Shown one piece after another: positions 48,103 through 62,861 of a stretch of DNA of 64,000 nucleotides. The translations under genes and the position numbers were made by a program. Under the pieces are notes generated by a model that saw only the letters and a list, made by a program, of their open reading frames with translations, was not told the DNA's origin and ran no database searches. The stretch is from positions 2,294,001 to 2,358,000 of the forward strand of contig NZ_CP051201.1 in assembly GCF_024181285.1 (NCBI RefSeq), given 5' to 3'. The stretch's first letter is position 1. Each line of letters starts with the position of its first letter. The stretch is from Treponema sp. OMZ 790 (lineage in GTDB: Bacteria; Spirochaetota; Spirochaetia; Treponematales; Treponemataceae).

Positions 48103-49614
48103 ATGAAAACAAACAACTCAAAAACTAAGACAAAAGCCTTTTTGGGAGCGGCTCTCATGCTGCTCATCGCACTTATCTTTACAGCCTGCCCGCAAAAGGT
48201 AAAACCTAAGGCAGAGGAACCGCCGGCACCGCCCAAACACGCCATTACATTCGGCGTGGAAGGCGGGAGCGGCACGCTCAAAGCAAAGGCATACGGAGTC
48301 GCCGAGACGACAACCAGCCCCATAAACGTGGAAGAAGGCAAGGCGGTAATATTCACGGCTAAAGCCAACGACGGCTACAGGGTGAAAGGCTGGACGCTAG
48401 ACGGTAAGCCTATTACCGAAGCAGGCACAAACACGGAGTACAAGCTCAAGGTGAGCAAGCCTGCAACAGTCAAAGTGAGCTTTGAAGCCATACCGCCAAC
48501 CAAATACACGGTAACGCTCACTCAAACGGAGCACGGCAAAGTAACAGCGTCGCCTGAAATCCCTGAAGATAAACAAGTGGCTAAAGACACTTTAATCACC
48601 TTCACGGCAAAGGCTGACGACGGCTACAAAGTTGACAAGTGGACGGTAACGCCTGCCGAAGCACTACAAGCTGGAGGAGCTGACGAAAGCCTGACCGCAA
48701 AAGTGAAAATCACTGCCGACACAACGGTAAGCGTGAGCTTTATTAAAAAAACCTACGCCATCACCTTTAGCGTGGAAGGCGGCACAGGCGGCACGCTTGA
48801 AGCAAAAGTTGACGGAAAAGAAATCAGCTCAGGCGACATGGTTGAACACGGCAAAAAGGTAGAATTCACACCTAAAGAGGAGAAAGGCTATAGGGTGAAA
48901 AAGTGGACGCTCGACGGCGAGAACATAGGTGGCATGGCGTATTTCACGCTCGGAGTAAGCCAAGCTGCAACAGTTACCGTGAGCTTTGAGCTAAGACCTG
49001 TCAAAGGCGGAGCTGTGTTTATCTTGAGCCCAAATAAGCTCACCATCGAAGTCAAGGCTAAGACGGAGGACGGCTCTGATATAACGGTGGAAGGTTGCAA
49101 CGAGACAACACTCAAAAGTGATAAGTATACAGAGCTACAGGCAAAGGGGACTGTCGTCATTCTCAAAGGCAACATCACCGAGCTTTCCTGCGGAGGCAAT
49201 CAGCTCACCGCCCTTAACGTGCAGGGCTTAACCGCTTTGCAAGAGCTGTGGTGCTCAGGTAATCAGCTCACTGAGCTCAACGTGCAAGGCTTAACCGCAT
49301 TGCAAACGCTTTTCTGTGAAGGCAATAAGCTCACTGAGCTTAACGTGCAAGGCTGCGCCGCATTGCAAAAGCTTGGTTGCTACAGCAACAAGCTTAACGC
49401 CCAAGCAATGACAGAGATATTAAACGCATTGCCAGCTCGTGAGGCAGGCGATTATGCAAGGGCTTATCTTTACACTGAGGAAACAGACGAACCCGAAGGC
49501 AACCACAAAGACTTCACCCAGCCCGCCGAGTTGAAAGCAGCCCTTGACGGTGCAAAGAAGAGGAACTGGAAGCTAGGGAAAATAAATGAAAGCGGAAACT
49601 GGGAAGACATTTAG
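48103..49614 (+). CDS. Surface lipoprotein with InlB-type B repeats and leucine-rich repeats
   Basis: A 503-aa lipoprotein, ATG 48103 after GGAGG. Signal: MKTNNSKTKTKAFLGAALML, lipobox IFTAC (Cys29), then PQKVKPKAEEPPAPPK. Residues 45-300 hold three or four beta repeats of the bacterial (InlB B-type) class: ITFGVEGGSGTLKAKAYG...GYRVKGWTLDG, YTVTLTQTEHGKVTASPE...GYKVDKWTVTP, ITFSVEGGTGGTLEAKV...GYRVKKWTLDG. Residues 345-440 hold LRRs (LTALNVQGLTALQELWCSGN, LTELNVQGLTALQTLFCEGN). Likely surface adhesin; LRR proteins of this kind mediate binding in oral treponemes. Signal shared in style with the FGE-fold array. Confidence 0.82.
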   Translation: MKTNNSKTKTKAFLGAALMLLIALIFTACPQKVKPKAEEPPAPPKHAITFGVEGGSGTLKAKAYGVAETTTSPINVEEGKAVIFTAKANDGYRVKGWTLDGKPITEAGTNTEYKLKVSKPATVKVSFEAIPPTKYTVTLTQTEHGKVTASPEIPEDKQVAKDTLITFTAKADDGYKVDKWTVTPAEALQAGGADESLTAKVKITADTTVSVSFIKKTYAITFSVEGGTGGTLEAKVDGKEISSGDMVEHGKKVEFTPKEEKGYRVKKWTLDGENIGGMAYFTLGVSQAATVTVSFELRPVKGGAVFILSPNKLTIEVKAKTEDGSDITVEGCNETTLKSDKYTELQAKGTVVILKGNITELSCGGNQLTALNVQGLTALQELWCSGNQLTELNVQGLTALQTLFCEGNKLTELNVQGCAALQKLGCYSNKLNAQAMTEILNALPAREAGDYARAYLYTEETDEPEGNHKDFTQPAELKAALDGAKKRNWKLGKINESGNWEDI

Positions 49615-49616
49615 AC

Positions 49617-49800
49617 ACCCCAGCCCACACCCCAGCAACAACTGGGGTTTCCAAAGGGGTGTCCCCTTTGGCAGACGGAAAAGGAAGGAGGGGTTTGGGG
49701 AGGAAGGTTCTGCCAGCGGAGCTTCGAGGCAAACCTGTTCTGTCGGGGTGTCCTTCCTCCCCAAAAACAGTTGGGGGTCTAAGGGGATACCTCCCCTTAA
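49617..49800. repeat. GC-rich palindromic element
   Basis: CCCCAG...CTGGGG, then CCAAAGGGG-tgt-CCCCTTTGG (49651-49671), then a perfect 14-bp inverted repeat TTTGGGGAGGAAGG (49694-49707) and CCTTCCTCCCCAAA (49752-49765), then AGGGG-ata-CCTCCCCTT. It is far richer in G+C than its surroundings. Open frames across it look like artefacts of composition. Confidence 0.75.
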
Positions 49801-49822
49801 AAAACATTTTTAGGAGGAAGCT

Positions 49823-50533
49823 ATGCTGAAATACTCGCTTCGCGAAAACTTACTCACCCCTGCGCCGGACGATTACATGGCGCAGGTGGCGGATGTGCGC
49901 TCGTACACGCTTGACGAGATTATCGACCTTATGATGGACAAGGGCACCACGCTTACGAGAGCGGATGTGGCGGCAACGCTGCAAGTCTACGGAGAAGTCT
50001 GCTCGAGCCTTATCAAAGACGGCTCGGCTGTTAACACACCGCTTATGAACACTGCTTTGAGCATATCGGGTGTTTTCAATGGAGCAAACGATATCTTCGA
50101 CAAAAAGCGGCATACGGTCAATTTGAACATAACCGCCGGCACCCTGCTTCGCGACGCGGCTTCAAAAGTTAAGTGCGAAAAGACCGAAGGAGCGAGTACC
50201 GACCCCTACATCACCGAAGTAACCGACATCGTAACGGGAACGGTAAACACAACACTGACCAAAGGCGGGGTGGTTCAACTGGTCGGAAGCCGCCTCAAAT
50301 TCGATGCCAAAGATAAAGCACAAGGTATCTTCTTTGTGCCCGAAACCGGAGAGGCCGTCCGCGCAGCAGTCATCGCCGAAAACAAACCCGCACGGGTTAT
50401 GGCAATCATCCCCGCCGACTTGCCGGCCGGTACGTATTATATCGAGGTGAGAACAAAGTATGCCAATGCGACAAAGCAGCTTAAAACGCTGAAAGTAGGC
50501 AGATTTGCCAAACCGCTTACTCTTAACGCATAA
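49823..50533 (+). CDS. HU-like DNA-binding / DUF4469 (Ig-like) protein
   Basis: A 236-aa protein with two parts. Residues 1-125 (MLKYSLRENLLTPAPDDYMA..., TLDEIIDLMMDKGTTLTRAD, NTPLMNTALSISGVF, KKRHTVNLNITAG) match the HU-like domain found with DUF4469. Residues 135-232 (DPYITEVTDIVTGTVNTTLT, GGVVQLVGSRLKFD, RVMAIIPADLPAGTYYIEVR) form an Ig/IPT-like DUF4469 domain. No signal peptide. Such proteins are common in Bacteroidetes and some spirochaetes; their role is not well established. The ATG has AGGAGG upstream. The end of the gene merges with a tandem repeat array. Confidence 0.8.
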   Translation: MLKYSLRENLLTPAPDDYMAQVADVRSYTLDEIIDLMMDKGTTLTRADVAATLQVYGEVCSSLIKDGSAVNTPLMNTALSISGVFNGANDIFDKKRHTVNLNITAGTLLRDAASKVKCEKTEGASTDPYITEVTDIVTGTVNTTLTKGGVVQLVGSRLKFDAKDKAQGIFFVPETGEAVRAAVIAENKPARVMAIIPADLPAGTYYIEVRTKYANATKQLKTLKVGRFAKPLTLNA

Positions 50534-50541
50534 GGCGCGGC

Positions 50542-50635
50542 GGACTTACCGCATAAGGTAGCTCCGGCTTACTGCATAGGGTAAGTCTGAGTTACTACAT
50601 AGGGTAAGCCGAACTTACTGCATAAGGTAAGCCTG
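50542..50635 (+). repeat. Four tandem ~23-bp units, each a small palindrome
   Basis: Units have the form (G)CTTAC-tgcatag-GGTAAG(C/T)C and run without spacers from just after the preceding stop codon. The gene's own last bases (TTAACGCATAAGG) look like a degenerate first unit. Each unit can fold by CTTAC/GTAAG pairing. Confidence 0.75.
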
Positions 50636-50779
50636 ACGTACCGAGATAAAACACGGTACTGATAAAGGATTTATTTAAGGTGATAAACGGTCAGTGGGCA
50701 CGAATGGGGTTCCGACCCGTAAAAAATTCTGCACAAGGGTGTAAACACACGATACAAATGGTATCGCGCGTTTACACGC

Positions 50780-51016
50780 CGAGTTTGCCTGCGGCAAACA
50801 TCGCATACATACAGCTTTAAGTTCGCAATTCTGAAGAATTGCTCACACTTGAAGATACTATTGAATATACAGCTGTCAGCTGTACAATCGGGATTCTTAA
50901 GGGCAGCGCCCTTAAGCGTTATTTGGAAAAAGGGATGGGTTTTAGGGAAGGTTTGAAAATCGGACATCCGTGTCCGATTTTCAACTCGAGTTTTAGGCTA
51001 ACGCCTAAAACATCGC
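50780..51016. repeat. Hairpin string before the variable lipoprotein array
   Basis: CGAG-TTTGCC-tgc-GGCAAA-CATCGC (50780-50804); a second module with constant parts CTTTAAGTTCGCA and TGCTCACACTT around a variable stem ATTC-tga-AGAAT (50815-50851); CAGCTG-t-CAGCTG (about 50871-50883); CTTAAGGGC/GCCCTTAAG (50897-50917); AAAATCGGACA-tccg-TGTCCGATTTT (50956-50981); CGAG-TTTTAGGC-taac-GCCTAAAA-CATCGC (50987-51016). The last two recur with the next gene. Confidence 0.8.
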
Positions 51017-51136
51017 TTACCTGCAGCTTTTACCGGCCTCCGTGCCGGGATTATAAAACTGCTTTTCCTACGGAAGAGCGAAAGAGGGCGGAGTGACCCT
51101 ATCCCCGCCCGCTATCGATATTCAAGGAGGTCTTAT

Positions 51137-52219
51137 ATGACACACTTACACAAAAGAGGAGCCGCGGCACTCATCATAGCCGCAATATTGGCACTGGTCT
51201 TTACAGGCTGCCCGAATAGCGCGGGCGGTTCGGGCGCGGGCGGCGGAACAACACCGCCCACACCGCCCGCACCCCCTGAAATTGTATACGAGTTTGTAGC
51301 AATTCCCGAGGCAACCATCACAGGCGTTGACCCTGACTACACCTTACCAGGAAATCAAGATTATTGGAAAGGCGTATTTATTAAAGACCGGAAGGTAAAA
51401 TTAAGCCCCTATAAGCTCGGCAAGACAGAGGTAACGTACGAGTTATGGCACGAGGTACTGACATGGGCAGAAGGTAAAGGCTACACCTTTGCAAACAAGG
51501 GAAGAGAAGGCAGTGCCGGAACCGTAGGAGCAGCTCCCACAGATGAAGGAAAAGAAGAGCCTGTAACGACTATAAGCTGGCGGGACTGTATTGTGTGGTG
51601 TAATGCGTATACGGAAATGAAGCTGGGCTCCGATGAGCAATGCGTATACCGCAAAAAGGACGATCATAATGCTGTATTAAAAGACGCGACGGCAACAGCT
51701 GATTGTGATGCAGCGTATGCTGAGATGGGTAAAAAAGGCTTTAGACTTCCGACTGAAGCCGAGTGGGAATATGCTGCCCGTTGGCAGGGAAGCGATAAAA
51801 CAAATGCGGAACAATACGGCGATGTATACCTTACCAAATTAAACAGTGCAAGCGGAGCGAAAGCTGACTGGAATACGGCGGAAACAGGAGAGGTTGCGTG
51901 GTATAGTGGTAATTCAGGAGGAAAAACTCATCCTGTAGGAAAAAAGAGAGCGAATGCACTTGGCTTACACGATATGAGCGGTAATGTCTGGGAATGGTGT
52001 TTTGATTGGCATAAGGATGACCCTGCATCAAACGATGCTGCTTATATGCAAGGCGGTATTGTTACCGATCCTCAGGGTGGTGCGTCGGGTCTTAGCCGTG
52101 TTAGACGCGGCGGCAGCTGTGGCAACTACGCGAGCAACTGCACTGTAGGCGGACGGTACGTCAGCAGTCCTGCCAGCAGGCGCGACGATCTTGGCTTCCG
52201 CCTGGCTTGTCTGCCTTAA
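51137..52219 (+). CDS. FGE/C-type-lectin-fold lipoprotein with DGR-type variable region (copy 1)
   Basis: A 360-aa TvpA-like lipoprotein. Signal MTHLHKRGAAALIIAAILAL, lipobox VFTGC (Cys25), linker PNSAGGSGAGGGTTPPTPP. Residues about 60-360 form a formylglycine-generating-enzyme (SUMF1) type domain: KLGKTEVTYELWHEVLTWAE, TTISWRDCIVWCNAYTE, KKGFRLPTEAEWEYAARWQG, DMSGNVWEWCFDW, ending GFRLACLP. Residues 319-351 (52091-52189) are the 33-codon variable region: constant R-V-x-R-G-G-S frame with variable codons ctt agc, aga, ggc aac tac, agc aac and so on. It is likely a surface binding protein. AAGGAGGT precedes the ATG; a hairpin follows the stop by 28 nt. Confidence 0.87.
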   Translation: MTHLHKRGAAALIIAAILALVFTGCPNSAGGSGAGGGTTPPTPPAPPEIVYEFVAIPEATITGVDPDYTLPGNQDYWKGVFIKDRKVKLSPYKLGKTEVTYELWHEVLTWAEGKGYTFANKGREGSAGTVGAAPTDEGKEEPVTTISWRDCIVWCNAYTEMKLGSDEQCVYRKKDDHNAVLKDATATADCDAAYAEMGKKGFRLPTEAEWEYAARWQGSDKTNAEQYGDVYLTKLNSASGAKADWNTAETGEVAWYSGNSGGKTHPVGKKRANALGLHDMSGNVWEWCFDWHKDDPASNDAAYMQGGIVTDPQGGASGLSRVRRGGSCGNYASNCTVGGRYVSSPASRRDDLGFRLACLP

Positions 52220-52247
52220 GTTCACACATTTTGCCGGAGAGGTACTC

Positions 52248-52308
52248 AAAATCGGACATCCGTGTCCGATTTTCAACTCGAGTTTTAGGCTAACGCCTAA
52301 AACATCGC
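52248..52308 (+). repeat. Post-VR hairpin pair downstream of copy 1
   Basis: AAAATCGGACA-tccg-TGTCCGATTTT (52248-52273), then CGAG-TTTTAGGC-taac-GCCTAAAA-CATCGC (52279-52308). Nearly identical to 50956-51016. The repeat unit that includes the 5' part of the lipoprotein gene is offset by exactly 1292 bp, which shows a tandem duplication. Confidence 0.85.
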
Positions 52309-52428
52309 TTACCTGCAGCTTTTACCGGCCTCCGTGCCGGGATTATAAAACCGCTTTTCCTACGGAAGAGCGGAAGCGGGCGGAGTGACCCTATCCCCGC
52401 CCGCTATCGATATTCAAGGAGGTCTTAT

Positions 52429-53379
52429 ATGACACACTTACACAAAAGAGGAGCCGCGGCGCTCATCACAGCCGCAACTTTAACACTGGCACTGCTGTTT
52501 ACCGCCTGCCCCAATAGCGCAGGCGGTTCGGGCGGCGGAACAACACCGCCCGCACCGTCTGCCGACAAAACCTACACGGTAGGCGGCGTACAATTTACAA
52601 TGAAAGGCATCGCCGCCGTAACGAACGGAACCGTAGGGCACACCGATAACACCGACAACAATGCACCGCACACGGTAAGCCTGACTGCCTACCGGATAGG
52701 AGAGACCGAAGTAACGCAGGAACTGTGGCAGGCGGTAATGGGGAATAATCCGAGTGTTTTTGGCGGCAGCCCTGAAGGCGGCGAAGTGCAGGAGAAGCGG
52801 CCGGTAGAGAATGTAAACTGGTATCAGTGTATAGCATTTTGCAATAAGTTGAGTAAGTTGTGCAATCTTGATCCGTGTTACACGGTTACCGGCATAAACT
52901 TCGATGCACTGAACTTTGGCGATATACCGACATCGAATGATACAAACTGGAATAATGCCGTATGCGACCGGAGTAAAAAGGGCTTCCGCTTACCGACGGA
53001 GGCCGAATGGGAATGGGCTGCCAAGGGCGGCACAAACGACAAATGGGCAGGAACGAATGAGGAAGCACAGCTCGTAAACTATGCGTGGTATGATGCAAAC
53101 AGCGGTAACAAAACACACCAAGTAAAGCTGAAATCGGCGAACGGCTACGGGTTATACGACATGAGCGGGAACGTATGGGAATGGTGCTGGGACTGGAGCG
53201 ATAGCTTATCCTATCCGCTGCCGCCTGATTATGAGGGTGCTGCGTCCGGTGATGACCGTGTCCTTCGCGGCGGCGGCTGGGACATTGTTGCGGGTTACGC
53301 TGCTCGTGCGTTTCGGGTCAGCGGCAGCCCCGACAACCGCGGCAACAGTGTTGGCTTGCGGCTGGTCTCGCGTCCCTAG
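52429..53379 (+). CDS. FGE-fold lipoprotein with DGR-type variable region (copy 2, class B 3' end)
   Basis: A 316-aa relative of the array with the same first 14 residues and 5' flank as copy 1. Its lipobox is LLFTAC (Cys27) and its FGE domain is distinct and shorter (YRIGETEVTQELWQAVMGNN, PVENVNWYQCIAFCNKLSKL, FRLPTEAEWEWAAKGG, DMSGNVWEWCWDW). The variable region is residues 275-307 (53251-53349). Its constant codons differ from class A: A-A-R-A replaces C-T-V-G, and the end is VGLRLVSRP. The same class B ending is found in the orphan cassette at 58979-59122. The mosaic of shared signal and different body suggests domain swapping after duplication. Confidence 0.85.
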   Translation: MTHLHKRGAAALITAATLTLALLFTACPNSAGGSGGGTTPPAPSADKTYTVGGVQFTMKGIAAVTNGTVGHTDNTDNNAPHTVSLTAYRIGETEVTQELWQAVMGNNPSVFGGSPEGGEVQEKRPVENVNWYQCIAFCNKLSKLCNLDPCYTVTGINFDALNFGDIPTSNDTNWNNAVCDRSKKGFRLPTEAEWEWAAKGGTNDKWAGTNEEAQLVNYAWYDANSGNKTHQVKLKSANGYGLYDMSGNVWEWCWDWSDSLSYPLPPDYEGAASGDDRVLRGGGWDIVAGYAARAFRVSGSPDNRGNSVGLRLVSRP

Positions 53380-53389
53380 GGTTTACACA

Positions 53390-53465
53390 GCATTTTTTCG
53401 TAAGCAAGGCGGTGAAGCGGGCGCAGCGTAAGCCGCCCGCAAGCAGCCTTGTGTCGAAAAAATGC
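53390..53465 (+). repeat. Long hairpin after the class B variable region
   Basis: GCATTTTTTCG (53390-53400) pairs with CGAAAAAATGC (53455-53465). Inside are GCAAGGC with GCAGCCTTG, and GCGGGCG (53417-53423) with CGCCCGC (53434-53440). The right half from 53417 is repeated at 56172 without its left arm. Confidence 0.8.
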
Positions 53466-53700
53466 GCCGGCAGCGGGAAGGCTGTTGAGCAGTTGTACCT
53501 CCGTGTACACTTCGCATAATGCGGAAGGAGAAAAAATGACTAGATCATTTAGTTATGATGATAATTTGAAGGGTATGGTCGATATCAGTTCTGACGGACT
53601 TGAAACAGCATATCATTTTTTAGGAGAAAATATATGATAAAATTAAATTTGAACAAGAGCTCAGCCGCTTCAAGCGGCAGGCTCTGTGCACTGAAAAGAG
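53417..53700 (+). repeat. 284-bp direct repeat, first copy
   Basis: Identical by eye to 56172-56455 (offset 2755 bp). It covers half a hairpin, the 33-codon ORF, and the first 22 codons of the lipoprotein gene. It marks a two-gene segmental duplication. Confidence 0.85.
53536..53637 (+). CDS. 33-residue ORF coupled to lipoprotein copy 3
   Basis: ATG 53536 after AAGGAG encodes MTRSFSYDDNLKGMVDISSD and continues GLETAYHFLGENI. Its TGA overlaps the ATG of the next gene (ATGA), so translation is probably coupled. An identical copy precedes lipoprotein copy 5 at 56291-56392. It has no signal peptide and is acidic. No family recognised. It may be the fossil N-terminus of another gene or a true leader; the good ribosome site favours translation. 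Confidence 0.6.
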   Translation: MTRSFSYDDNLKGMVDISSDGLETAYHFLGENI

Positions 53701-54779
53701 CGGCGGCGCTCATCATAGCCGCATTACTGCTTGCCGCAGTGCTGCTGTTTACCGGCTGCCCGAATAATGCGGGCGGAAGCGGTTCGGGCAGTGCCACGCC
53801 GCCTGCACCGCCCGATGTAGGTTTTTTTGAAGATACAGGCGACGGCTTTATAAAAATAACCCCTCCTGCAAAAGGCATTGTAGGCGTTGACCCTGACTAC
53901 ACCTTACCCGGATCTCAAGATTATTGGAAAGGCGTATTTATTAAAGACCGAAAGGTAAAATTAAGCCCCTACAAGCTCGGCAAGACAGAGGTAGCATACG
54001 AGTTATGGCACGAGGTACTGACATGGGCAGAAGGTAAAGGCTACACCTTTGCAAACAAGGGAAAAGAAGGCAGTGCCGGAACCGTAGGAGCCGCTCCCAC
54101 AGATGAAGGAAAAAAAGAGCCTGTAACTGAAATAAACTGGCGGGACTGCATTGTGTGGTGTAATGCGTATACGGAAAAAGAAAAAGGAATAGGCGAATGC
54201 GTCTACCGCAAAAAGGACAATCATACGGTTGTATTAAAAGATGCGACGGCAACAGCTGATTGTGATGCCGCCTATGCCGATATGAGTAAAAAAGGCTTTA
54301 GACTTCCGACTGAAGCTGAGTGGGAATATGCGGCCCGTTGGCAGGGAAGCGATAAAACAAATGCAGCACAATACGGCGATGTATGGCTGACCAAATTGAA
54401 CAGTGCAAGCGGAGCGAAAGCTGACTGGAATGATGCTGCGGAAACAGGAGCGGTTGCGTGGTATAGTGGTAATTCAGGCTACAAAACTCATCCTGTAGGA
54501 AAAAAGCGGGCAAATGCACTTGGCTTACACGATATGAGCGGGAATGTCTGGGAATGGTGTTTTGATTGGTATGCTGATAATCCTGCATCAAACGATAGTA
54601 CTTATGTGCAAGGCGGTATTGTTACCGATCCTCAAGGGGCCGCGTCGGGTACTAACCGCGTCAGGCGTGGCGGCAGTTGGCTCTACGACGCGAACCTCTG
54701 CCCTGTAGGCAAGCGGGACTACAGCAGTCCTGACCGCAGGAGCCACAATCTTGGCTTCCGCCTGGCTTGTCTGCCCTAA
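53634..54779 (+). CDS. FGE/C-type-lectin-fold lipoprotein with DGR-type variable region (copy 3)
   Basis: A 381-aa member. Its N-terminus (MIKLNLNKSSAASSGRLCAL) is longer than in copies 1 and 2; lipobox LLFTGC (Cys42). The FGE domain closely follows copy 1 (YKLGKTEVAYELWHEVLTWA, EINWRDCIVWCNAYTEKEKG, KKGFRLPTEAEWEYAARWQG, DMSGNVWEWCFDWYADNPAS). The variable region is residues 340-372 (54651-54749): act aac, agg, ctc tac gac, aac ctc, aag, gac tac agc, gac cgc, agc cac aat. It ends GFRLACLP. A 15-bp hairpin begins 25 nt after the stop. Confidence 0.87.
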   Translation: MIKLNLNKSSAASSGRLCALKRAAALIIAALLLAAVLLFTGCPNNAGGSGSGSATPPAPPDVGFFEDTGDGFIKITPPAKGIVGVDPDYTLPGSQDYWKGVFIKDRKVKLSPYKLGKTEVAYELWHEVLTWAEGKGYTFANKGKEGSAGTVGAAPTDEGKKEPVTEINWRDCIVWCNAYTEKEKGIGECVYRKKDNHTVVLKDATATADCDAAYADMSKKGFRLPTEAEWEYAARWQGSDKTNAAQYGDVWLTKLNSASGAKADWNDAAETGAVAWYSGNSGYKTHPVGKKRANALGLHDMSGNVWEWCFDWYADNPASNDSTYVQGGIVTDPQGAASGTNRVRRGGSWLYDANLCPVGKRDYSSPDRRSHNLGFRLACLP

Positions 54780-54803
54780 GTTCACACATTTTGCCGCAGA
54801 GGT

Positions 54804-54896
54804 ACTCAAAATCGGACATCCGTGTCCGATTTTGAGTTTCGAGTTTTGCCTCACGGCAAAACATCGTAATGCTGGAACCACCGCCGTCCGTGGCGG
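54804..54896 (+). repeat. Post-VR hairpin triplet downstream of copy 3
   Basis: ACTCAAAATCGGACA-tccg-TGTCCGATTTTGAGT (54804-54837), CGAG-TTTTGCC-tcac-GGCAAAA-CATCG (54840-54866), and CCACCGCC-gtcc-GTGGCGG (about 54878-54896). Close copies follow lipoprotein copies 4 (56075-56166), 5 (57505-57596, with a different first stem) and 6 (58757-58848). Confidence 0.85.
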
Positions 54897-54961
54897 TAAA
54901 GCGGTGAAACCGAACTATATAATTACAAATTGATAAAACTTTAATTAAGGAGATTTTCAAG

Positions 54962-56050
54962 ATGAAAACAATCAACAACAAGAAAAAAGGTGCTGCGGCG
55001 CTCATCACAGCCGCAATATTGGCAGTAGGGCTGCTTTTTACAGGCTGTCCCAATAGTGCGGGCGGTTCGGGCGGCGGAACGACACCGCCCACACCGCCCG
55101 CTGTAGGTTCTTTTGAAGATACAGGCGACGGCTTTGTAAAAATAATACCTCCTGCAAAAGGCATTGTAGGCGTTGCTCCCGGATGCACCTTACCCGGAAC
55201 TGACAATTATTGGAAAGGTGTATTTATTAAAGACCGGAAGGTAAAATTAAGCCCCTACAAGCTCGGCAAAACAGAGGTAACGTACAAACTTTGGAAAGAA
55301 GTTTACGATTGGGCGGTAAAACCTGAACATGGGTATGTATTTGCCAATGTAGGAGTAAAAGGCAGTTCCGGAAGCGGAACTGACGATGAGCCTGTAACAA
55401 TGATAAGTTGGCGGGACTGTATTGTGTGGTGTAATGCGTATACGGAAATGAAGCTGGGCTCCGATGAGCAATGCGTCTACCGCAAAAAAGACAATCATAC
55501 GGTTGTATTAAAAAACGCGACTGATACAGCTGCTTGCGATGCAGCCTATGCCGATATGGGTAAAAAAGGCTTTAGGCTGCCGACCGAAGCGGAATGGGAA
55601 TACGCAGCCCGCTGGCAGGGAAGCGATACTGAAAATGCGGCACAATACGGCGATGTATGGCTGACCAAATTAAACAGTGCAAGCGGAGCGAAAGCTGACT
55701 GGAATACGGCGGAAACAGGAGAGGTTGCGTGGTATAATGGTAATTCAGTAGGAAAAACTCATCCTGTAGGAAAAAAGAGAGCGAATGCACTCGGTTTATA
55801 TGACATGAGCGGTAATGTCTGGGAATGGTATTGGGATTTGTATAAGGATGACCCTGCATCAAACGATGCTGCTTATATGCAAGGCGGTATTGTTACCGAT
55901 CCTCAGGGTGGTGCGTCGGGTGCTTACCGTGGTAGGCGCGGCGGCAGCTGGCGCGATATCGCGGACTTCTGCACTGTAGGCCTACGGATCCGCAACAGTC
56001 CTGACGGCAGGAACAACGATCTTGGTTTCCGCCTGGCTTGTCTGCCCTAA
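54962..56050 (+). CDS. FGE/C-type-lectin-fold lipoprotein with DGR-type variable region (copy 4)
   Basis: A 362-aa member. N-terminus MKTINNKKKGAAALITAAIL, lipobox LLFTGC (Cys29). The FGE domain differs from copy 3 in the first third (YKLWKEVYDWAVKPEHGYVF) but keeps MISWRDCIVWCNAYTEMKLG, FRLPTEAEWEYAARWQG and DMSGNVWEWYWDLYKDDPAS. The variable region is residues 321-353 (55922-56020): gct tac, agg, cgc gat atc, gac ttc, cta, atc cgc aac, gac ggc, aac aac gat. It ends GFRLACLP. AAGGAG lies before the ATG. A hairpin triplet follows. Confidence 0.87.
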   Translation: MKTINNKKKGAAALITAAILAVGLLFTGCPNSAGGSGGGTTPPTPPAVGSFEDTGDGFVKIIPPAKGIVGVAPGCTLPGTDNYWKGVFIKDRKVKLSPYKLGKTEVTYKLWKEVYDWAVKPEHGYVFANVGVKGSSGSGTDDEPVTMISWRDCIVWCNAYTEMKLGSDEQCVYRKKDNHTVVLKNATDTAACDAAYADMGKKGFRLPTEAEWEYAARWQGSDTENAAQYGDVWLTKLNSASGAKADWNTAETGEVAWYNGNSVGKTHPVGKKRANALGLYDMSGNVWEWYWDLYKDDPASNDAAYMQGGIVTDPQGGASGAYRGRRGGSWRDIADFCTVGLRIRNSPDGRNNDLGFRLACLP

Positions 56051-56171
56051 GTTCACACATTTTGCCGGAGAGGTACTCAAAATCGGACATCCGTGTCCGA
56101 TTTTGAGTTTCGAGTTTTGCCTCACGGCAAAACATCGTAATGCTGGAACCACCGCCGTCCATGGCGGTAAA

Positions 56172-56455
56172 GCGGGCGCAGCGTAAGCCGCCCGCAAGCA
56201 GCCTTGTGTCGAAAAAATGCGCCGGCAGCGGGAAGGCTGTTGAGCAGTTGTACCTCCGTGTACACTTCGCATAATGCGGAAGGAGAAAAAATGACTAGAT
56301 CATTTAGTTATGATGATAATTTGAAGGGTATGGTCGATATCAGTTCTGACGGACTTGAAACAGCATATCATTTTTTAGGAGAAAATATATGATAAAATTA
56401 AATTTGAACAAGAGCTCAGCCGCTTCAAGCGGCAGGCTCTGTGCACTGAAAAGAG
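56172..56455 (+). repeat. 284-bp direct repeat, second copy
   Basis: Same sequence as 53417-53700, here joined on its left to the GGCGG hairpin instead of to the left arm of the long hairpin. The junction falls within a palindrome, which suggests that palindromes were the exchange points. Confidence 0.85.
56291..56392 (+). CDS. 33-residue ORF coupled to lipoprotein copy 5
   Basis: Second identical copy of the ORF at 53536-53637, with the same AAGGAG and the same ATGA overlap with the downstream lipoprotein gene. Preservation of both signals in both copies cannot by itself prove selection, because the whole 284-bp repeat is identical. Confidence 0.55.
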   Translation: MTRSFSYDDNLKGMVDISSDGLETAYHFLGENI

Positions 56456-57480
56456 CCGCGGCACTCATCACAGCCGCAATATTGGCACTGGTCTTTACAG
56501 GCTGCCCGAATAATGCGGGCGGAAGCGGTTCGGGCAGTGCCACACCGCCTGCCCCGCCCGATGTAGGTTCTTTTGAAGACGCAGGCGACGGCTTTGTAAA
56601 AATAATACCGCCTGCAAACGGCATCACAGGCGTTGCCCCTAACTACGACTTACCCGGAAGTGAAGCTTTGTGGAAAGGCGTATTCCGTGCAGGCCGAAAG
56701 GTAAAATTAAATCCCTACAAGCTCGGCAAGACGGAGGTAACGTACAAACTTTGGAAAGAAGTTTACGATTTGGCGACTGGTCATGGATATACATTTGCCA
56801 ATCCGGGAGTAAAAGGTAAAGACGGAAGCGGAACTGACGATGAGCCTGTAACGACTATAAGCTGGCGGGACTGCATAGTATGGTGTAATGCGTATACTCA
56901 AATAAAGCTGGGCTCCGATGAGCAATGCGTATACCGCAAAAAAGACGATCATACGGTTGTATTAAAAAACGCGACTGATACAGCTGCTTGCGATGCAGCC
57001 TATGCCGATATGAGTAAAAAAGGCTTTAGACTTCCTACCGAAGCCGAGTGGGAATATGCTGCCCGCTGGCAGGGAAGCGATACAACAAATGCGGTGCAAT
57101 ACGACGATGTATGGCTGACCAAATTAAACAGTGCAAGCGGAGCAAAAGCTGACTGGAATGATGCTGCGGAAACAGGAGCGGTTACGTGGTATAGTGGTAA
57201 TTCAGGTAGCAAAACTCATCCTGTTGGAAAAAAGCGGGCGAATGCACTCGGTTTATGTGATATGAGCGGAAATGTCTGGGAATGGTGTTTTGATTGGTAC
57301 GGCGATATAGAGGCTAACACAGTTACCGATCCTCAAGGTGGTGCGTCGGGTACTTACCGTGTTTATCGCGGCGGCAGCTGGGACTCCGACGCGGACGGCT
57401 GCACTGTAGGCATTCGGGACTACAGCAGTCCTGCCGGCAGGAGCAACTTTCGTGGCTTCCGGCTGGCTTGTCGGCCTTGA
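56389..57480 (+). CDS. FGE/C-type-lectin-fold lipoprotein with DGR-type variable region (copy 5)
   Basis: A 363-aa member. It shares the N-terminus of copy 3 (MIKLNLNKSSAASSGRLCAL) but its body resembles copies 4 and 6 (YKLWKEVYDLATGHGYTFAN). Lipobox LVFTGC (Cys39). FGE landmarks TTISWRDCIVWCNAYTQIKL, KKGFRLPTEAEWEYAARWQG, DMSGNVWEWCFDWYGD. The variable region is residues 322-354 (57352-57450): act tac, tat, gac tcc gac, gac ggc, att, gac tac agc, gcc ggc, agc aac ttt. It ends GFRLACRP. The head-to-body combination again indicates recombination within the array. Confidence 0.87.
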   Translation: MIKLNLNKSSAASSGRLCALKRAAALITAAILALVFTGCPNNAGGSGSGSATPPAPPDVGSFEDAGDGFVKIIPPANGITGVAPNYDLPGSEALWKGVFRAGRKVKLNPYKLGKTEVTYKLWKEVYDLATGHGYTFANPGVKGKDGSGTDDEPVTTISWRDCIVWCNAYTQIKLGSDEQCVYRKKDDHTVVLKNATDTAACDAAYADMSKKGFRLPTEAEWEYAARWQGSDTTNAVQYDDVWLTKLNSASGAKADWNDAAETGAVTWYSGNSGSKTHPVGKKRANALGLCDMSGNVWEWCFDWYGDIEANTVTDPQGGASGTYRVYRGGSWDSDADGCTVGIRDYSSPAGRSNFRGFRLACRP

Positions 57481-57504
57481 GTTCACACATTTTGCCGGAG
57501 AGCT

Positions 57505-57596
57505 GCTCAAAAATGTACATCCGTGTACATTTTTGAGCTTCGAGTTTTGCCCACGGCAAAACATCGCAAGAATAGAACCACCGCCGTCCATGGCGG
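57505..57596 (+). repeat. Post-VR hairpin triplet downstream of copy 5 (alternative stem)
   Basis: Here the first hairpin is GCTCAAAAATGTACA-tccg-TGTACATTTTTGAGC (57505-57538). The stem sequence differs from the neighbours on both arms at once, while the ACA-TCCG-TGT apex stays the same. Then CGAG-TTTTGCC-cac-GGCAAAA-CATCGC (57541-57567) and the GGCGG hairpin. Confidence 0.85.
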
Positions 57597-57661
57597 TAAA
57601 GCGGTGTAGCCGAACTATATAATTACAAATTGATAAAACTTTAATTAAGGAGATTTTCAAG

Positions 57662-58732
57662 ATGAAAACAATCAACAACAAGAAAAAAGGTGCTGCGGTG
57701 CTCATCACAGCCGCAATATTGGCAGTAGGGCTGCTTTTTACCGGCTGTCCCAATAGCGCGGGCGGTTCGGGCAGTGCCACACCGCCCGCACCGCCCGCAC
57801 CGCCCGATGTAGGTTCTTTTGAAGACACAGGCGACGGCTTTATAAAAATAACCCCTCCTGCAAAAGGCATTGTAGGCGTTGCTCCAGGATGTACCTTACC
57901 CGGAACTGACGCTAAGTGGAAAGGCGTATTTATTGACGGGCGTAAGGTAAAATTAAGCCCCTACAAGCTGGGCAAAACAGCGGTAACGTACAAACTTTGG
58001 AAAGAAGTTTACGATTGGGCGGTAAAAGCTGAAAACGGATACAAGTTTGCCAATGAAGGAGTAAAAGGCAGTGATGGAACCGGAAATGACGAAGAGCAGC
58101 CTGTAACGACTATAAGCTGGCGGGACTGCATTGTGTGGTGTAATGCGTATACGGAAAAAGAAAAAGGAATAGACGCATGTGTATACCGCAACAAAGACAA
58201 TCACGATTTGGTATTAAAAGACGCAACGGCAGAAGCTGCTTGTGATGCAGCCTATGCCGATATGAGTAAAAAAGGCTTTAGACTTCCTACCGAAGCTGAG
58301 TGGGAATATGCTGCCCGCTGGCAGGGAAGCGATACAACAAATGCGGTGCAATACGGCGATGTATGGCTGACCAAATTAAACAGTGCAAGCGGAGCAAAAG
58401 CTGACTGGAATAATGCGGATGAGACAAAAGCCGTTGCGTGGTATAGTGTTAATTCAGGTAGCAAAACTCATCCTGTTGGAAAAAAGCGGGCGAATGCACT
58501 CGGTTTATGTGATATGAGCGGAAATGTCTGGGAATGGTGTTTTGATTGGTACGGCGATATAGAGGCTAACACAGTTACCGATCCTCAAGGTGGTGCGTCG
58601 GGTCCTGCCCGTGTTTTACGCGGCGGCTGCTGGCGCAACTTCGCGCGCGACTGCACTGTAGGCAAACGGTACTACTACAGTCCTGGCAGCAGGCACAGCA
58701 GTGTTGGCTTCCGGTTGGCTTGTCGGCCTTGA
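57662..58732 (+). CDS. FGE/C-type-lectin-fold lipoprotein with DGR-type variable region (copy 6)
   Basis: A 356-aa member with the head of copy 4 (MKTINNKKKGAAVLITAAIL, lipobox LLFTGC, Cys29; 2700 bp offset from copy 4). FGE landmarks YKLGKTAVTYKLWKEVYDWA, TTISWRDCIVWCNAYTEKEK, FRLPTEAEWEYAARWQG, DMSGNVWEWCFDWYGD. The variable region is residues 315-347 (58604-58702): cct gcc, tta, cgc aac ttc, cgc gac, aaa, tac tac tac, ggc agc, cac agc agt. It ends GFRLACRP. A hairpin triplet begins 25 nt after the stop. Confidence 0.87.
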   Translation: MKTINNKKKGAAVLITAAILAVGLLFTGCPNSAGGSGSATPPAPPAPPDVGSFEDTGDGFIKITPPAKGIVGVAPGCTLPGTDAKWKGVFIDGRKVKLSPYKLGKTAVTYKLWKEVYDWAVKAENGYKFANEGVKGSDGTGNDEEQPVTTISWRDCIVWCNAYTEKEKGIDACVYRNKDNHDLVLKDATAEAACDAAYADMSKKGFRLPTEAEWEYAARWQGSDTTNAVQYGDVWLTKLNSASGAKADWNNADETKAVAWYSVNSGSKTHPVGKKRANALGLCDMSGNVWEWCFDWYGDIEANTVTDPQGGASGPARVLRGGCWRNFARDCTVGKRYYYSPGSRHSSVGFRLACRP

Positions 58733-58756
58733 GTTCACACATTTTGCCGGAGAGGT

Positions 58757-58848
58757 ACTCAAAATCGGACATCCGTGTCCGATTTTGAGTTTCGAGTTTT
58801 GCCTCACGGCAAAACATCGTAATGCTGGAACCACCGCCGTCCATGGCG
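58757..58848 (+). repeat. Post-VR hairpin triplet downstream of copy 6
   Basis: ACTCAAAATCGGACA-tccg-TGTCCGATTTTGAGT (58757-58790), CGAG-TTTTGCC-tcac-GGCAAAA-CATCG (58793-58818), then the CCACCGCC/GGCGG hairpin. Confidence 0.85.
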
Positions 58849-58925
58849 GTAAAGCGGTGAAACCGAACAGGCAAAATGTGTTTTGTGGTGCAGTGTATTT
58901 TTGAAAATAAAACTGCACTGTGTCA

Positions 58926-59155
58926 GCCGCTTTAGCGGCTCGAAAATTTTTGAGTAAAAAACGGTATGGACTTTATAAGGTGGTGCGTCGGGTACTAACC
59001 GTGTTAAACGCGGCGGCAGCTGGTACGATGATGCGGATAGCGCTGCTCGTGCGATTCGGAACGACGGCGACCCCGACGCCCGCGTCAGCATTCTTGGCTT
59101 GCGGCTGGTCTCGCGTCCCTAGGGTTCACACATTTTGCCGCTTTAGCGGCTCGAA
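58926..59155 (+). repeat. Direct repeats flanking the orphan variable cassette
   Basis: A 19-nt sequence, GCCGCTTTAGCGGCTCGAA, occurs at 58926-58944 and 59137-59155, on either side of the orphan cassette. Each copy contains the small palindrome GCCGC-ttta-GCGGC. This is the arrangement expected if the cassette arrived with, or by exchange between, a shared 3' hairpin. Confidence 0.75.
58979..59122 (+). pseudogene. Orphan variable-region cassette (class B) without a gene body
   Basis: An open stretch of 48 codons reads GGASGTNRVKRGGSWYDDAD, SAARAIRNDGDPDARVSILG, LRLVSRP and stops at TAG. It is immediately preceded by an in-frame TAA and has no start. It is the last part of an FGE-fold gene only, with a 99-nt variable region (58994-59092) aligning codon for codon with the six genes. 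It is not a template repeat: the variable codons are tac gat gat, gat agc and so on, not AAC-rich. It may serve as a donor for recombination or be debris. Confidence 0.85.
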
Positions 59156-59184
59156 GTTTTTTGTAATTTAAGGAGTTTTAGACT

Positions 59185-59586
59185 ATGAATTTATTTGATT
59201 CTATGAAAGACAAACACATCTTAATTCAAGATGTCGGTAATATTGAGGAATTGCAGCGGTTTATCGGGCATAACATCTACCGCAGAGATCAACCGCCGGC
59301 ACCGTCTGAGTACACACCCGTTGCCTACGACAAACTTAAAGACTACCTGCAAAAACTGCCTGCAGGCGATACCGAACAAAAAATTCGCACAGGCTTTAAA
59401 GAGCTCGTCTTTTTATGCGATGAAAAGGGAGAAGAAAAAGGCTGCCGCGAAATGCGTAAACGCTTCGCCGCATACACCAAGGGCATACCTGACGGCTCTC
59501 GCCTCCGCCAAGAATTGGTACAAGCCTCAACAATCGAGGAGTATAAAGCTATAATTCAAAATTATTTTAATCCAAAAACTTTATAG
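59185..59586 (+). CDS. Chimeric ORF: unknown N-terminus fused to dusB C-terminal fragment
   Basis: A 133-aa frame after AAGGAG. Residues 1-62 (MNLFDSMKDKHILIQDVGNI..., DQPPAPSEYTPVAYDKLKDY) match nothing I know. Residues 63-125 are the C-terminal segment of DusB (TEQKIRTGFKELVFLCDEKG, CREMRKRFAAYTKGIPDGS, STIEEYKAIIQ), the helical tRNA-contacting part, without the catalytic barrel. It ends NYFNPKTL. The DNA of the dusB part is about 97% identical to 46236-46425. Its 3' end overlaps the convergent DUF4097 gene by 20 nt. It may be translated, but any tRNA role is speculation. Confidence 0.7.
   Translation: MNLFDSMKDKHILIQDVGNIEELQRFIGHNIYRRDQPPAPSEYTPVAYDKLKDYLQKLPAGDTEQKIRTGFKELVFLCDEKGEEKGCREMRKRFAAYTKGIPDGSRLRQELVQASTIEEYKAIIQNYFNPKTL
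59371..59560 (+). repeat. Right direct repeat: dusB 3' end (candidate island boundary)
   Basis: Counterpart of 46236-46425. Differences by eye: one in atcCgc/attCgc, one in gagctT/gagctC, and a cluster of four in ctcaaaac/ctctcgcc. Confidence 0.85.
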
Positions 59587-60826
59587 AAAAACTTCCGTTT
59601 CCGCCTTTTATATGTAAGGTGTTTTTTGCATTTTGATTTCCGACAGTAAAAATGGACTCTCCATTAATTTTTATATTTGAGCGGGAGGCGTCTTCAAAAA
59701 AAACACCGTAGTTGTTTCTTGAATCTTTAATATGCAAATTAACGGAACCTATAGACCTTTCAATTGAACAGGCTCCTTTTAATATGCCGGAAAAATCGAA
59801 TTTTCCTATACTAAGATTAATAGCAGCATCTTTTAAAATACAGTTATCTAAATATGTACTCCCATTGCTTGTCTCAATAAACGCCTTATCTGCTAGAACA
59901 TTTTTTATTTTTGTTTTGCCGACGGAAAATTTCATTTTTAACATATTTGCAGTAAAGTTTTTAAGCTCAATATTCCCTACTGAACCGTTTATATCGAACT
60001 CGTCTATTTTGTTTGAATTTTGTAAATCCATATCTACATGGCCTATGCCGCTTTCAATTTTTACCTTACCTTCAAAAGTTCCTTTAAAATTAAAACCTCC
60101 GTTTATTGAAAGTCCGGGATTTTTAAAATTACCGTTTTCCACAGTAATTGAACCTACTGAAGTTTTTAAAGCCGTTTTATTTTCTACCGATATATTTTCT
60201 ATTCGGGTGTCTCCTACACTCGTTTCTATTTTACAATCATCACACAAAATATTTTTCATTTCAAGAAAACCTATGCTTCCTTCCACATCAAGATTTTTAC
60301 ATTTAACATCGGAAACCTTGACTTGATTTATTCCTGCGTTTAGAGCAAATGAAGTACAAGACATCCCAGTAATCTCGGCTCTGCCAATGCTCGAGTTCAC
60401 AATCAGACTATCGATGGAAGCTGAAGCAGGGATGACAAGATCAATATACGCAATAATCCTGTCTTTCTTTTTTCCTGATCTTCTATTTTTCGGTCTGATT
60501 TCTTCTTCGGTAATTACAAGTTCTGAAGAAGATCTTTTCACCTTTACGGCATGTTCCGGTAAGCCTTTTATACTGTAATGCAGGGAAGCCGCCGATACAT
60601 GGGTATGGATAGTTAATTTTGCATTGCAATTTTCTACTTTAATTATTTTAGGAATTTTATCCGGCGGAAGCTCTGCACTTATTACGTTATCAAGCCATTT
60701 TTCATTATAACACACTCCCGGATCATCAAGATTATCTTCATCAAATGCCCCGCTGCAAAACAGCCTTAAACCTGAAATGCCGATTAAAGAAACAGCAATA
60801 AAAAAAATTATTCTCTTTTTTTTCAT
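59567..60826 (-). CDS. DUF4097-type beta-helix putative adhesin/envelope protein
   Basis: A 419-aa exported protein, ATG 60826 after GAGGAG. The N-terminus MKKKRIIFFIAVSLIGISGL is a signal or anchor. The rest is repeating short strands of the head-GIN/DUF4097 type: DSLIVNSSIGRAEITGMSC, KIETSVGDTRIENISVENK, ALKTSVGSITVENGNFK, EFDINGSVGNIELKNFTAN, AFIETSNGSTYLDNCILKD, each about 20-22 residues with S-V/I-G turns, giving a right-handed beta-solenoid. Function of the family is not established. Convergent with, and 20 nt overlapping, the dusB remnant. Confidence 0.78.
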   Translation of the reverse strand: MKKKRIIFFIAVSLIGISGLRLFCSGAFDEDNLDDPGVCYNEKWLDNVISAELPPDKIPKIIKVENCNAKLTIHTHVSAASLHYSIKGLPEHAVKVKRSSSELVITEEEIRPKNRRSGKKKDRIIAYIDLVIPASASIDSLIVNSSIGRAEITGMSCTSFALNAGINQVKVSDVKCKNLDVEGSIGFLEMKNILCDDCKIETSVGDTRIENISVENKTALKTSVGSITVENGNFKNPGLSINGGFNFKGTFEGKVKIESGIGHVDMDLQNSNKIDEFDINGSVGNIELKNFTANMLKMKFSVGKTKIKNVLADKAFIETSNGSTYLDNCILKDAAINLSIGKFDFSGILKGACSIERSIGSVNLHIKDSRNNYGVFFEDASRSNIKINGESIFTVGNQNAKNTLHIKGGNGSFSIKFLD

Positions 60827-60934
60827 AGAATTCTCCTCAAGCATTAGTCTAAGCGATTTTTTACAGTTTGTCCAGTATAAAAATTAGTTTCCCGGCCTTC
60901 AATTGACATAAGATGATTTCTTCTATATACTTAT

Positions 60935-61130: not shown

Positions 61131-62861
61131 ATGTCAGACACATGCACAGTAAAAGCACTGCCTTTGGTTCCGTTTAAGGAAATGCCTTATACGCGGCCGG
61201 ATATGAAGGCGATTGAAAAGGGCTTTGCCGATGCCCTATCTAAATTTAAGGCAGCAGCTTCGGTAAAAGAACAAATCGAAGCTATCGATATGGTGCAGAC
61301 CATAAACCGCGAGTACAGCACTATGGCTTCACTGGCCTCTGTCAGGCACACCATCGATACAAGGGACGAATTCTACGATAAAGAAAACGATTTTTATGAT
61401 GAAGCAGGGCCTCTTTTTAGTAAGCTTTCAAACGAATTCGGCGCAGAAATGGTCAAGTCCAAATTCAGAGCCGAGCTCGAAAAAGAATTCGGTCATCAGG
61501 TTTTTGATTTAACAGATCTATCCTTAAAGGTATTCAGCCCCGAAATTATGGACGACCTCATGGCCGAAAACAAGCTTACCAGTAAATACAGTAAACTCAT
61601 CGCCTCTGCCCAGATCGAATTCCAAGGCGAAAAACGAACCCTTTCACAGTTAAGTCCCTTTATGCAGGACATGGACAGGGAGGTAAGAAAGGCAGCTGCA
61701 AAAGCCTATTACGGTTTTTTTGAAGAAAACGAAGCCGAATTCGATTCAATCTATGATGAGCTTGTAAAGATACGCACAAAGATAGCCAAAAAACTCGGCT
61801 ACAAGAACTTTGTTCAGCTTGCCTATGACCGACTCGGAAGAACCGAGTACAATGCCGAAATGGTTGCAAAATACCGAAAGCAGATTTATGAGCTTGTTGT
61901 TCCGATTGCCCAAGACTTAAAAAAGCGCCAAAGCAAGAGATTAAAGCTCGATAAGGTCTATTATTACGATACGGGTCTCAAATACCTTACGGGAAATGCC
62001 GTTCCGCAAGGCGAGCCTGATTGGATTGTTGAGCAGGCAAAGAAAATGTACAACGAGCTTTCGCCGGAAACAAGCGAGTTCTTTACAATGATGACAGGCT
62101 ACGGCCTTATGGACTTGCTTTCAACCAAGGGAAAAGCAGGCGGAGGCTATTGCACGGGTTTCCCCATGTACAAGGTTCCCTTTATCTTTGCAAACTTTAA
62201 CAAGACCCAGCACGATGTCGAGGTTATGACCCACGAAGCAGGCCATGCCTTCCAAGCCTATCAAAGCAGGGATGCCCGTCTTCTCGAATACGGATGGCCC
62301 ACCCTTGAAGCTTGCGAAATTCACTCGATGAGTATGGAATTTTTCACATGGCCCTGGATGGAGCTTTTCTTTAAGCACCAGACAGAAAAGTTTAAGTTTA
62401 CCCATCTTTCAGGCGCCTTCGAATTCCTCCCCTACGGAGCCACAGTAGACGAATTCCAGCACTGGGTATATGAAAACCCCGAAACAACTCCTGCCGAAAG
62501 AAAGGCGGAATGGCATAAGATAGAATTAAAGTACAATCCCTCAATCGATTATGCCGATAACGACTACCTTAACCGCGGCGGTTTTTGGGTAAAACAGGGG
62601 CACATCTTTGCTTCTCCTTTCTATTATATAGATTACACCTTGGCCCAAGTTTGCGCCCTACAGTTTTGGGTAAAGGCCAATGCCGACCGCAAAACGGCAT
62701 GGGAAGATTATTTACGCCTCTGCAAGGCAGGCGGAAGCCTCCCCTTCTTGGAGCTTTTAAAACTTGCAAACCTAAAAAATCCCTTTGAAGAAGACTGCAT
62801 CGCTTCGGTAACCCCCGAATGCGAAAAATGGCTCAATTCGATAGACGATTCAAAACTGTAG
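61131..62861 (+). CDS. M3-family oligoendopeptidase (PepF-like)
   Basis: A 576-aa cytosolic zinc metallopeptidase cleaving short peptides. The zinc site HEAGH is at residues 368-372, in VEVMTHEAGHAFQAYQS; the third ligand Glu lies downstream in EACEIHSMSMEFF. The conserved GGYCTGF segment and C-terminal NRGGFWVKQGHIFASPFYYIDYTLAQ agree with the M3 group close to PepF/Pz-peptidase (about 560-600 aa). AGGAG precedes the ATG. It would serve amino-acid acquisition in a peptide-fermenting treponeme. Confidence 0.92.
   Translation: MSDTCTVKALPLVPFKEMPYTRPDMKAIEKGFADALSKFKAAASVKEQIEAIDMVQTINREYSTMASLASVRHTIDTRDEFYDKENDFYDEAGPLFSKLSNEFGAEMVKSKFRAELEKEFGHQVFDLTDLSLKVFSPEIMDDLMAENKLTSKYSKLIASAQIEFQGEKRTLSQLSPFMQDMDREVRKAAAKAYYGFFEENEAEFDSIYDELVKIRTKIAKKLGYKNFVQLAYDRLGRTEYNAEMVAKYRKQIYELVVPIAQDLKKRQSKRLKLDKVYYYDTGLKYLTGNAVPQGEPDWIVEQAKKMYNELSPETSEFFTMMTGYGLMDLLSTKGKAGGGYCTGFPMYKVPFIFANFNKTQHDVEVMTHEAGHAFQAYQSRDARLLEYGWPTLEACEIHSMSMEFFTWPWMELFFKHQTEKFKFTHLSGAFEFLPYGATVDEFQHWVYENPETTPAERKAEWHKIELKYNPSIDYADNDYLNRGGFWVKQGHIFASPFYYIDYTLAQVCALQFWVKANADRKTAWEDYLRLCKAGGSLPFLELLKLANLKNPFEEDCIASVTPECEKWLNSIDDSKL

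What the first reader, a model, noticed from the sequence alone, without database searches (positions are those of the whole stretch)
51137..59122. Array of six lipoprotein genes plus an orphan cassette with adenine-directed (DGR-type) hypervariable 3' segments
Seen: all seven copies align without gaps over 99 nt: 52091-52189, 53251-53349, 54651-54749, 55922-56020, 57352-57450, 58604-58702 and 58994-59092. Sixteen of the 33 codons are nearly constant within each 3'-end class (e.g. cgt gtt, cgc ggc ggc agc tgg, gcg, cgg). Seventeen codons vary: 1, 2, 5, 11-13, 15, 16, 21, 23-25, 28, 29, 31-33. At most of these, the first two bases can be any nucleotide but the last stays C or T (A-class codon 11: ggc, ctc, cgc, gac, cgc; codon 33: gat, aat, gat, ttt, agt). 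That is what A-to-N change on AAC/AAT/AAA template codons would leave. A few exceptions (tgg to tgt in copy 1, gat at codon 12 in copy 4) are noted. Known: DGRs mutate adenines during retrohoming, the FGE/C-type-lectin fold is their usual display scaffold, and TvpA of T. denticola is a studied example. Inference: one locus with six tandem targets is an unusually expanded surface-diversification system.
Basis: partly seen in the sequence, partly recalled or inferred. Interest (0 to 1): 0.95.

Follow-up and report, generated by a model that had tools for sequence, protein, structure and literature searches.

The report
Six-gene DGR array, overwritten template
A relative of the gum-disease spirochete Treponema denticola carries six side-by-side predicted surface-lipoprotein genes; in five of them the 3' ends differ almost only where a known retroelement template has adenines, the template copy beside them has been overwritten by a variable end, and the enzyme that would rewrite them is likely lost, so a known diversity-generating system was likely expanded and then frozen.

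Summary
All seven 99-nt segments are where stated. The predicted AAC-rich template exists in relatives (T. denticola ATCC 35405, T. putidum, G021). Against it, the five class-A copies change at 97 of 195 adenines and 11 of 330 other bases. Copies 5 and 6 are identical for 154 nt before the variable region, then differ at 27 of 39 adenine sites and 2 of 66 others: retargeting followed duplication or homogenisation. Copy 2 and the orphan body are a second class.

It has the template leader and first 45 nt unmutated, then a class-B variable region with a target-type 3' flank: a template overwritten, most likely by recombination. G021 shows a second case. tblastn found no DGR reverse transcriptase in the window. 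The contig inferred to hold the window encodes an accessory-protein fragment with a tail like a reverse-transcriptase C-terminus, so the enzyme is likely deleted there; an intact copy elsewhere is not excluded.

Multi-target DGRs, in T. denticola and elsewhere, are published. The tandem array beside an overwritten template is the new part; a frozen repertoire is the likeliest state.

The parts
49823..50533 (+). HU-like DNA-binding / DUF4469 protein gene at the head of the target cluster; same relative place in T. putidum and other relatives
   Evidence: PF14848 and PF14734; alignment order in L144, L145, L146; 9 of 22 copies in five genomes within 3 kb of a target, 0.3 expected by random placement
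51137..52219 (+). target gene 1, class A; variable region 52091-52189
52429..53379 (+). target gene 2, class B; variable region 53251-53349
53634..54779 (+). target gene 3, class A; variable region 54651-54749
54962..56050 (+). target gene 4, class A; variable region 55922-56020; matches TvpA 2y3c
56389..57480 (+). target gene 5, class A; variable region 57352-57450
57662..58732 (+). target gene 6, class A; variable region 58604-58702
53405..58857 (+). two-gene unit (genes 3-4) repeated as genes 5-6
   Evidence: 53405-56175 aligns to 56160-58857 at 83.6% over 2792 columns
58852..58978 (+). template (TR) leader as found upstream of templates in relatives
   Evidence: 58852-59026 (leader plus first 48 nt of the template site) is 98.3% identical to T. 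putidum over 175 nt and 87% to ATCC 35405 over 182 columns; leader motif 58955-58982 without mismatch, 0 expected in 100 shuffles
58979..59023 (+). first 45 nt of the class-A template, unmutated
   Evidence: 45 of 45 identical to the T. putidum template
59024..59132 (+). class-B variable region and target-type 3' flank in place of the rest of the template
   Evidence: 58979-59132 aligns to a T. putidum class-B target end at 85%
54804..54837 (.). palindrome downstream of variable region 3; similar ones after genes 1, 4, 5, 6 (52248, 56075, 57505, 58757), none of that size after gene 2; possible homing hairpin, not specific to targets
   Evidence: which also shows similar palindromes away from variable regions at 46590, 47900, 50953
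59371..59571 (+). second copy of the dusB 3' end, bounding the block that holds the array
   Evidence: 95.5% over 201 nt to 46236-46436; G021 has no counterpart of 46434-60897 at this site

Best explanation
This is a tandem array of six diversity-generating-retroelement (DGR) target genes, the five class-A copies of which differ in their 3' ends almost only at template adenines, lying beside a template site that has been overwritten by a variable region, so that the array is likely a frozen repertoire in an organism that has likely lost the reverse transcriptase. Shown: adenine-restricted change relative to templates of close relatives; change inside the variable region of copies 5 and 6 while the flanks stayed identical; the orphan at the template position, with leader and first 45 nt intact, followed by a class-B variable region and a target-type flank. 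Inferred: the changes were made by mutagenic retrohoming (error-prone copying of an AAC-rich template RNA, the cDNA replacing the 3' end of the target); the overwriting was homologous recombination at the invariant CGCGGCGGCAGCTGG block, because it also carried sequence from downstream of the variable region, which retrohoming is not known to transfer; the RT of this genome was removed by an internal deletion; the proteins are surface lipoproteins with a variable C-type-lectin-fold binding face like TvpA.
For: Class A: 97/195 A sites against 11/330 others, p 1e-37; 16 class-A variable regions of five other genomes, 268/528 against 22/912. Copies 5/6: 154/154 nt identical before the VR, 27/39 A sites against 2/66 others different inside. 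Class B: 26 variable positions among three sequences, none at codon position 3, 24 at class-A template adenines; copy 2 plus orphan 33/54 against 15/126 relative to a T. vincentii class-B template-like repeat, p 4e-11. Template site. Second overwritten template in G021, beside an RT reduced to its two ends. No RT or HRDC match in the window by tblastn. P0261, on a contig of the same length and contig count as five of the six window proteins, joins an accessory N-terminus to an RT-like C-terminus.
Against: The window's genome is not held, so an RT or intact template elsewhere cannot be excluded; the protein search lists 120 of 3828 hits and only cluster representatives' contigs. Linking P0261 to the window rests on contig length and contig count, and the RT-like tail is only 12 residues, matched in G010 and G013 but not in ATCC 35405 at E 0.01. 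Non-A changes in the class-A core (7/285) are no more frequent than in RT-bearing ATCC 35405 (11/285; both summed from rows), so there is no sign of long decay. The palindromes after the variable regions also occur away from targets. Two of ten class-A pairs share longer runs of A-site states than 95% of a random null.
Confidence: 0.75

Rival explanations
1. The array is still active: an RT and an intact template elsewhere in the genome rewrite the targets in trans, and the overwritten template is one dead copy.
For: Dispersed targets with one core per genome are published for T. denticola (PMC4891356). A genome can hold one A-rich template site and one overwritten (G021). The inferred contig has at least two more target proteins, P0003 and P0084. 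No excess of non-A change.
Against: The only core relic found on that contig is the accessory-RT remnant. None of the 120 RT clusters listed has its representative on it (not conclusive). Five of the six window proteins were listed, each as one sequence on three contigs, so no variation is seen among those contigs, which may however be clonal.
Confidence: 0.2
2. Variation comes from gene conversion with silent cassettes such as the orphan (vlsE-like), not from reverse transcription.
For: Recombination has clearly moved variable-region sequence into the template site. Two of ten class-A pairs (3/4 and 3/5) share runs of 6 and 7 A-site states, above the 95% level of 5.
Against: Conversion does not predict change confined to template adenines. 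Eight of ten pairs share runs within the null. The orphan body is class B and matches none of the five class-A genes.
Confidence: 0.03
3. The orphan is still a template, now delivering a mostly fixed class-B cassette to targets.
For: Leader intact.
Against: It has 13 adenines in the 75-nt body against 32 in the intact class-A template, and a VR-type end. Copy 2 does not match it at adenine-derived sites.
Confidence: 0.02

Closest known systems
Treponema denticola DGR, ATCC35405 type (TvpA; target-TR-HRDC-RT; Nimkulrat et al. 2016, PMC4891356, parts 1-5 of 6 read; Le Coq and Ghosh 2011, not held)
   Same: Near-identical template, same FGE/C-type-lectin target family with lipoprotein signals, two to seven targets per genome, strains with leftover targets but no RT/TR
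   Different: There the seven targets of ATCC 35405 are dispersed and the template is intact; here six stand in tandem beside an overwritten template
Multi-VR DGRs elsewhere (PMC3521204: up to four VRs; PMC6642488: Stenotrophomonas SKA14 with two TRs and six VRs in different ORFs; passages only)
   Same: Several paralogous targets per DGR, ascribed to gene duplication
   Different: Other target families; in the passages I saw, no overwritten template
Bordetella phage BPP-1 DGR (PMC3240598, passages)
   Same: Adenine-directed change of a 3' variable region; inverted repeat downstream of the target
   Different: Its hairpins have 7-10 bp GC-rich stems with GRNA loops; here longer stems with TCCG loops that also occur away from targets

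Membership tests
DGR target (variable protein) | 3' variable region matching a template except at template adenines | tested here: met
   Five class-A genes. Gene 2 (class B) against a T. vincentii template-like repeat only:
DGR target (variable protein) | C-type-lectin (FGE-type) fold | tested here: met
   By sequence: PF03781 in 6 of 6; gene 4 to TvpA 2y3c, E 1.4e-35. No structure predicted
Complete DGR | intact adenine-rich template repeat | tested here: not met
   In the 64-kb window: the one leader site is overwritten. Rest of the genome not testable
Complete DGR | DGR reverse transcriptase gene | tested here: inconclusive
   None in the window by tblastn; accessory-RT remnant on the inferred contig; genome not held
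Active DGR | new adenine-site changes arising in a population | not testable with these tools
   needs reads or passaged cultures
Surface lipoprotein | lipoprotein signal peptide and surface exposure | tested here: inconclusive
   lipobox-like motif seen in 6 of 6 (motif recalled); exposure not testable

The most novel reading that the evidence does not exclude
Recombination of a variable region into the template is a recurrent off-switch for DGRs: once targets multiply, homology between targets and template makes template overwriting and RT deletion likely, which turns a hypermutable surface system into a fixed multi-gene repertoire of once-random binders. Two of the ten template-leader sites examined show the overwriting.
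Probability: 0.35. Interest if true: 0.65.

Novelty: new variant of a known kind. Interest (0 to 1): 0.5.

Why it matters
DGRs are studied as engines of diversity; how they stop is little described. This locus seems to show it in one place: targets duplicated in tandem, diversified independently, and a template overwritten by a variable region. If right, multi-target strains without an RT carry fixed, once-random binding proteins, which matters when variable regions are read as evidence of ongoing surface variation in periodontal treponemes.

Tried and rejected
Silent-cassette gene conversion as the main source of variation: 8 of 10 class-A pairs lie within a random null for shared runs, two (3/4, 3/5) exceed its 95% level; the adenine restriction argues against it. 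Phage origin: one viral contig (L165) holds a class-A target end, 66% identical over 77 of 381 residues, and no viral contig holds the exact 30-nt template core; not pursued further. Hairpins as a DGR-specific mark: similar palindromes occur away from targets. Whole genome of the window: not held. The RT protein search lists 120 of 3828 hits and only representatives' contigs, so the lack of the 3,093,697-bp contig there is no proof. Strain identity through papers: nothing found. No structure was predicted.

Papers: PMC4891356, parts 1-5 of 6 read; PMC3240598, PMC6642488, PMC3521204, PMC7517822, PMC8144416 and PMC10907252 by found passages only; others only as listings; PMC3167528 not held. In nine paper searches and these passages I saw no description of an overwritten template.

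Full report
Identity of the host. A gene downstream of the array (61131-62861) is 95% identical to genome G021 and 90-91% to G001 (T. putidum), G016 (taken as T. denticola ATCC 35405), G017 and G018; 7 of 8 genomes of that genus set matched. Longer alignments to G021 are 88-94% identical. The window is therefore from a T. denticola-group treponeme. Its own genome is not held. Five of its six target proteins (genes 1, 3, 4, 5, 6) are among the 120 hits listed, each as one sequence on three contigs, the longest 3,093,697 bp; gene 2 was not listed. Two further targets on a contig of that length, P0003 and P0084, are named 'MULTISPECIES ... [unclassified Treponema]'.

The observation. The seven segments and six ORFs are as described. 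All six proteins match PF03781; gene 4 matches the solved T. denticola variable protein TvpA, 2y3c, E 1.4e-35.

The template. AAC-rich templates with the predicted sequence lie in G016 and T. putidum, and with a cut 3' end in G021. Relative to it, class-A copies 1, 3, 4, 5 and 6 have 97 of 195 adenines changed and 11 of 330 other bases (Fisher p 1e-37). Sixteen class-A variable regions from five other genomes (G001, G016, G017, G018, G021) give 268 of 528 and 22 of 912; two template rows and three rows of other classes or truncated were left out, and one of the 16 is the overwritten template site of G021. Only loci already fetched were used, so this is not every target of those genomes. Copies 5 and 6 are identical for 154 nt before the variable region, then differ at 27 of 39 adenine sites and 2 of 66 others. 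Retargeting therefore came after these flanks were made identical by duplication or conversion.

Two classes. Copy 2, the orphan body and a T. putidum gene form class B: 26 variable positions in 90, none at codon position 3, 24 at class-A template adenines. A class-B template-like repeat exists in T. vincentii OMZ 806 (L203). Against it copy 2 and the orphan change at 33 of 54 A and 15 of 126 other positions, 10 of those 15 at third codon positions. Of three further class-B sequences, T. putidum fits about as well (15/27 against 7/63); those of G014 and T. vincentii fit less well (16/27 against 11/63; 18/27 against 19/63, the last not well aligned).

The orphan is the template site. The stretch 58852-59026, leader plus the first 48 nt of the site, is 98.3% identical to T. 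putidum and 87% to ATCC 35405. The first 45 nt are the unmutated template; then a class-B variable region begins and continues into a target-type 3' flank. A leader-pattern search of 18 genomes found nine sites in four of them; with the window, ten. Two are intact, one is intact but for its 3' end, one is truncated, four diverge within about 20 nt, and two are overwritten: the window and G021. In G021 the overwritten site shares 3'-end markers with the neighbouring target (GGCATCC, VR-type end), then returns to template-type flank; over 110 nt it differs from that neighbour at 24 positions, 22 of them template adenines. Transfer of the end region points to recombination more than to retrohoming (inference; retrohoming boundaries partly from passages of PMC3240598, partly recalled).

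The reverse transcriptase. G016 has target, template, HRDC accessory gene and RT in a row. PF00078 was found in 4 of 13 genomes and 4 of 9 (G001 in both); among G001, G016, G017, G018 and G021 only in G016. With the RT protein as query 8 of 18 genomes matched, several only as fragments. tblastn of RT and HRDC against the window gave nothing. In G021 RT residues 1-18 are followed directly by the last 28, and the accessory gene is broken. On a contig of 3,093,697 bp the accessory relative P0261 (110 aa) aligns over residues 1-93 to T. vincentii-group accessory proteins at 75% identity, then carries 12 residues 92% identical to RT C-termini in G010 and G013, in frame with the RT matches there (E 5e-4); the tail gave no match to the ATCC 35405 RT at E 0.01. 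The simplest reading is an internal deletion of the RT in the window's genome. An intact RT elsewhere is not excluded.

Array growth and setting. The unit of genes 3-4 is repeated as genes 5-6 (83.6% over 2792 columns). The order HU gene, A, B, A, template is shared with T. putidum at another chromosomal place. The array lies between dusB and a 201-nt copy of the dusB 3' end (95.5%). G021 has no counterpart of 46434-60897 at this site; ATCC 35405 holds other DNA there, including an HU-gene relative. HU-like genes lie within 3 kb of targets in 9 of 22 cases in five genomes against 0.3 expected.

Known and new. Multi-target T. denticola DGRs, losses of RT/TR and leftover targets are published (PMC4891356), as are DGRs with up to six VRs elsewhere (PMC3521204, PMC6642488, passages). 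Not seen in my nine paper searches and the passages read: a six-target tandem array in a treponeme, two template classes in one array, and a template overwritten by a variable region, found here twice.

Noticed in passing
window 49823-50533: HU-like/DUF4469 gene family travels with DGR target clusters (9 of 22 copies within 3 kb, 0.3 expected): an unrecognised accessory or just a mobile neighbour.
   Followed up: partly
window 46236-46436 and 59371-59571: Direct repeat of the dusB 3' end around the array; G021 lacks 46434-60897 at this site. No integrase among the ORFs of the block that I scanned.
   Followed up: partly
L203, about position 940, minus strand (T. vincentii OMZ 806): A second, class-B template-like repeat about 0.7 kb from a class-B variable region, besides the template next to the RT of that genome.
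   Followed up: partly
window 46590, 47900, 50953 and after target genes 1, 3, 4, 5, 6: Family of long palindromes with TCCG or CGGA loops, often beside a second hairpin; REP-like, may act as terminators or recombination sites.
   Followed up: no
window 2462-3388, 34309-35175, 46632-47630: Three putative transposase/nuclease genes (Transposase_31 in all three; TIGR01784 for the third), one at the edge of the block with the array.
   Followed up: no
window 48040-49614: Predicted protein with InlB-type and leucine-rich repeats in the same block.
   Followed up: no
L165 5001-5228: A viral-collection contig holds the 3' end of a class-A target with its own variable region; prophage cargo or mis-binned bacterial DNA.
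   Followed up: partly
G016, G001, G018 template-leader sites (L190, L192, L187, L194): Four leader sites without template: decayed copies of the core are common in this group.
   Followed up: partly
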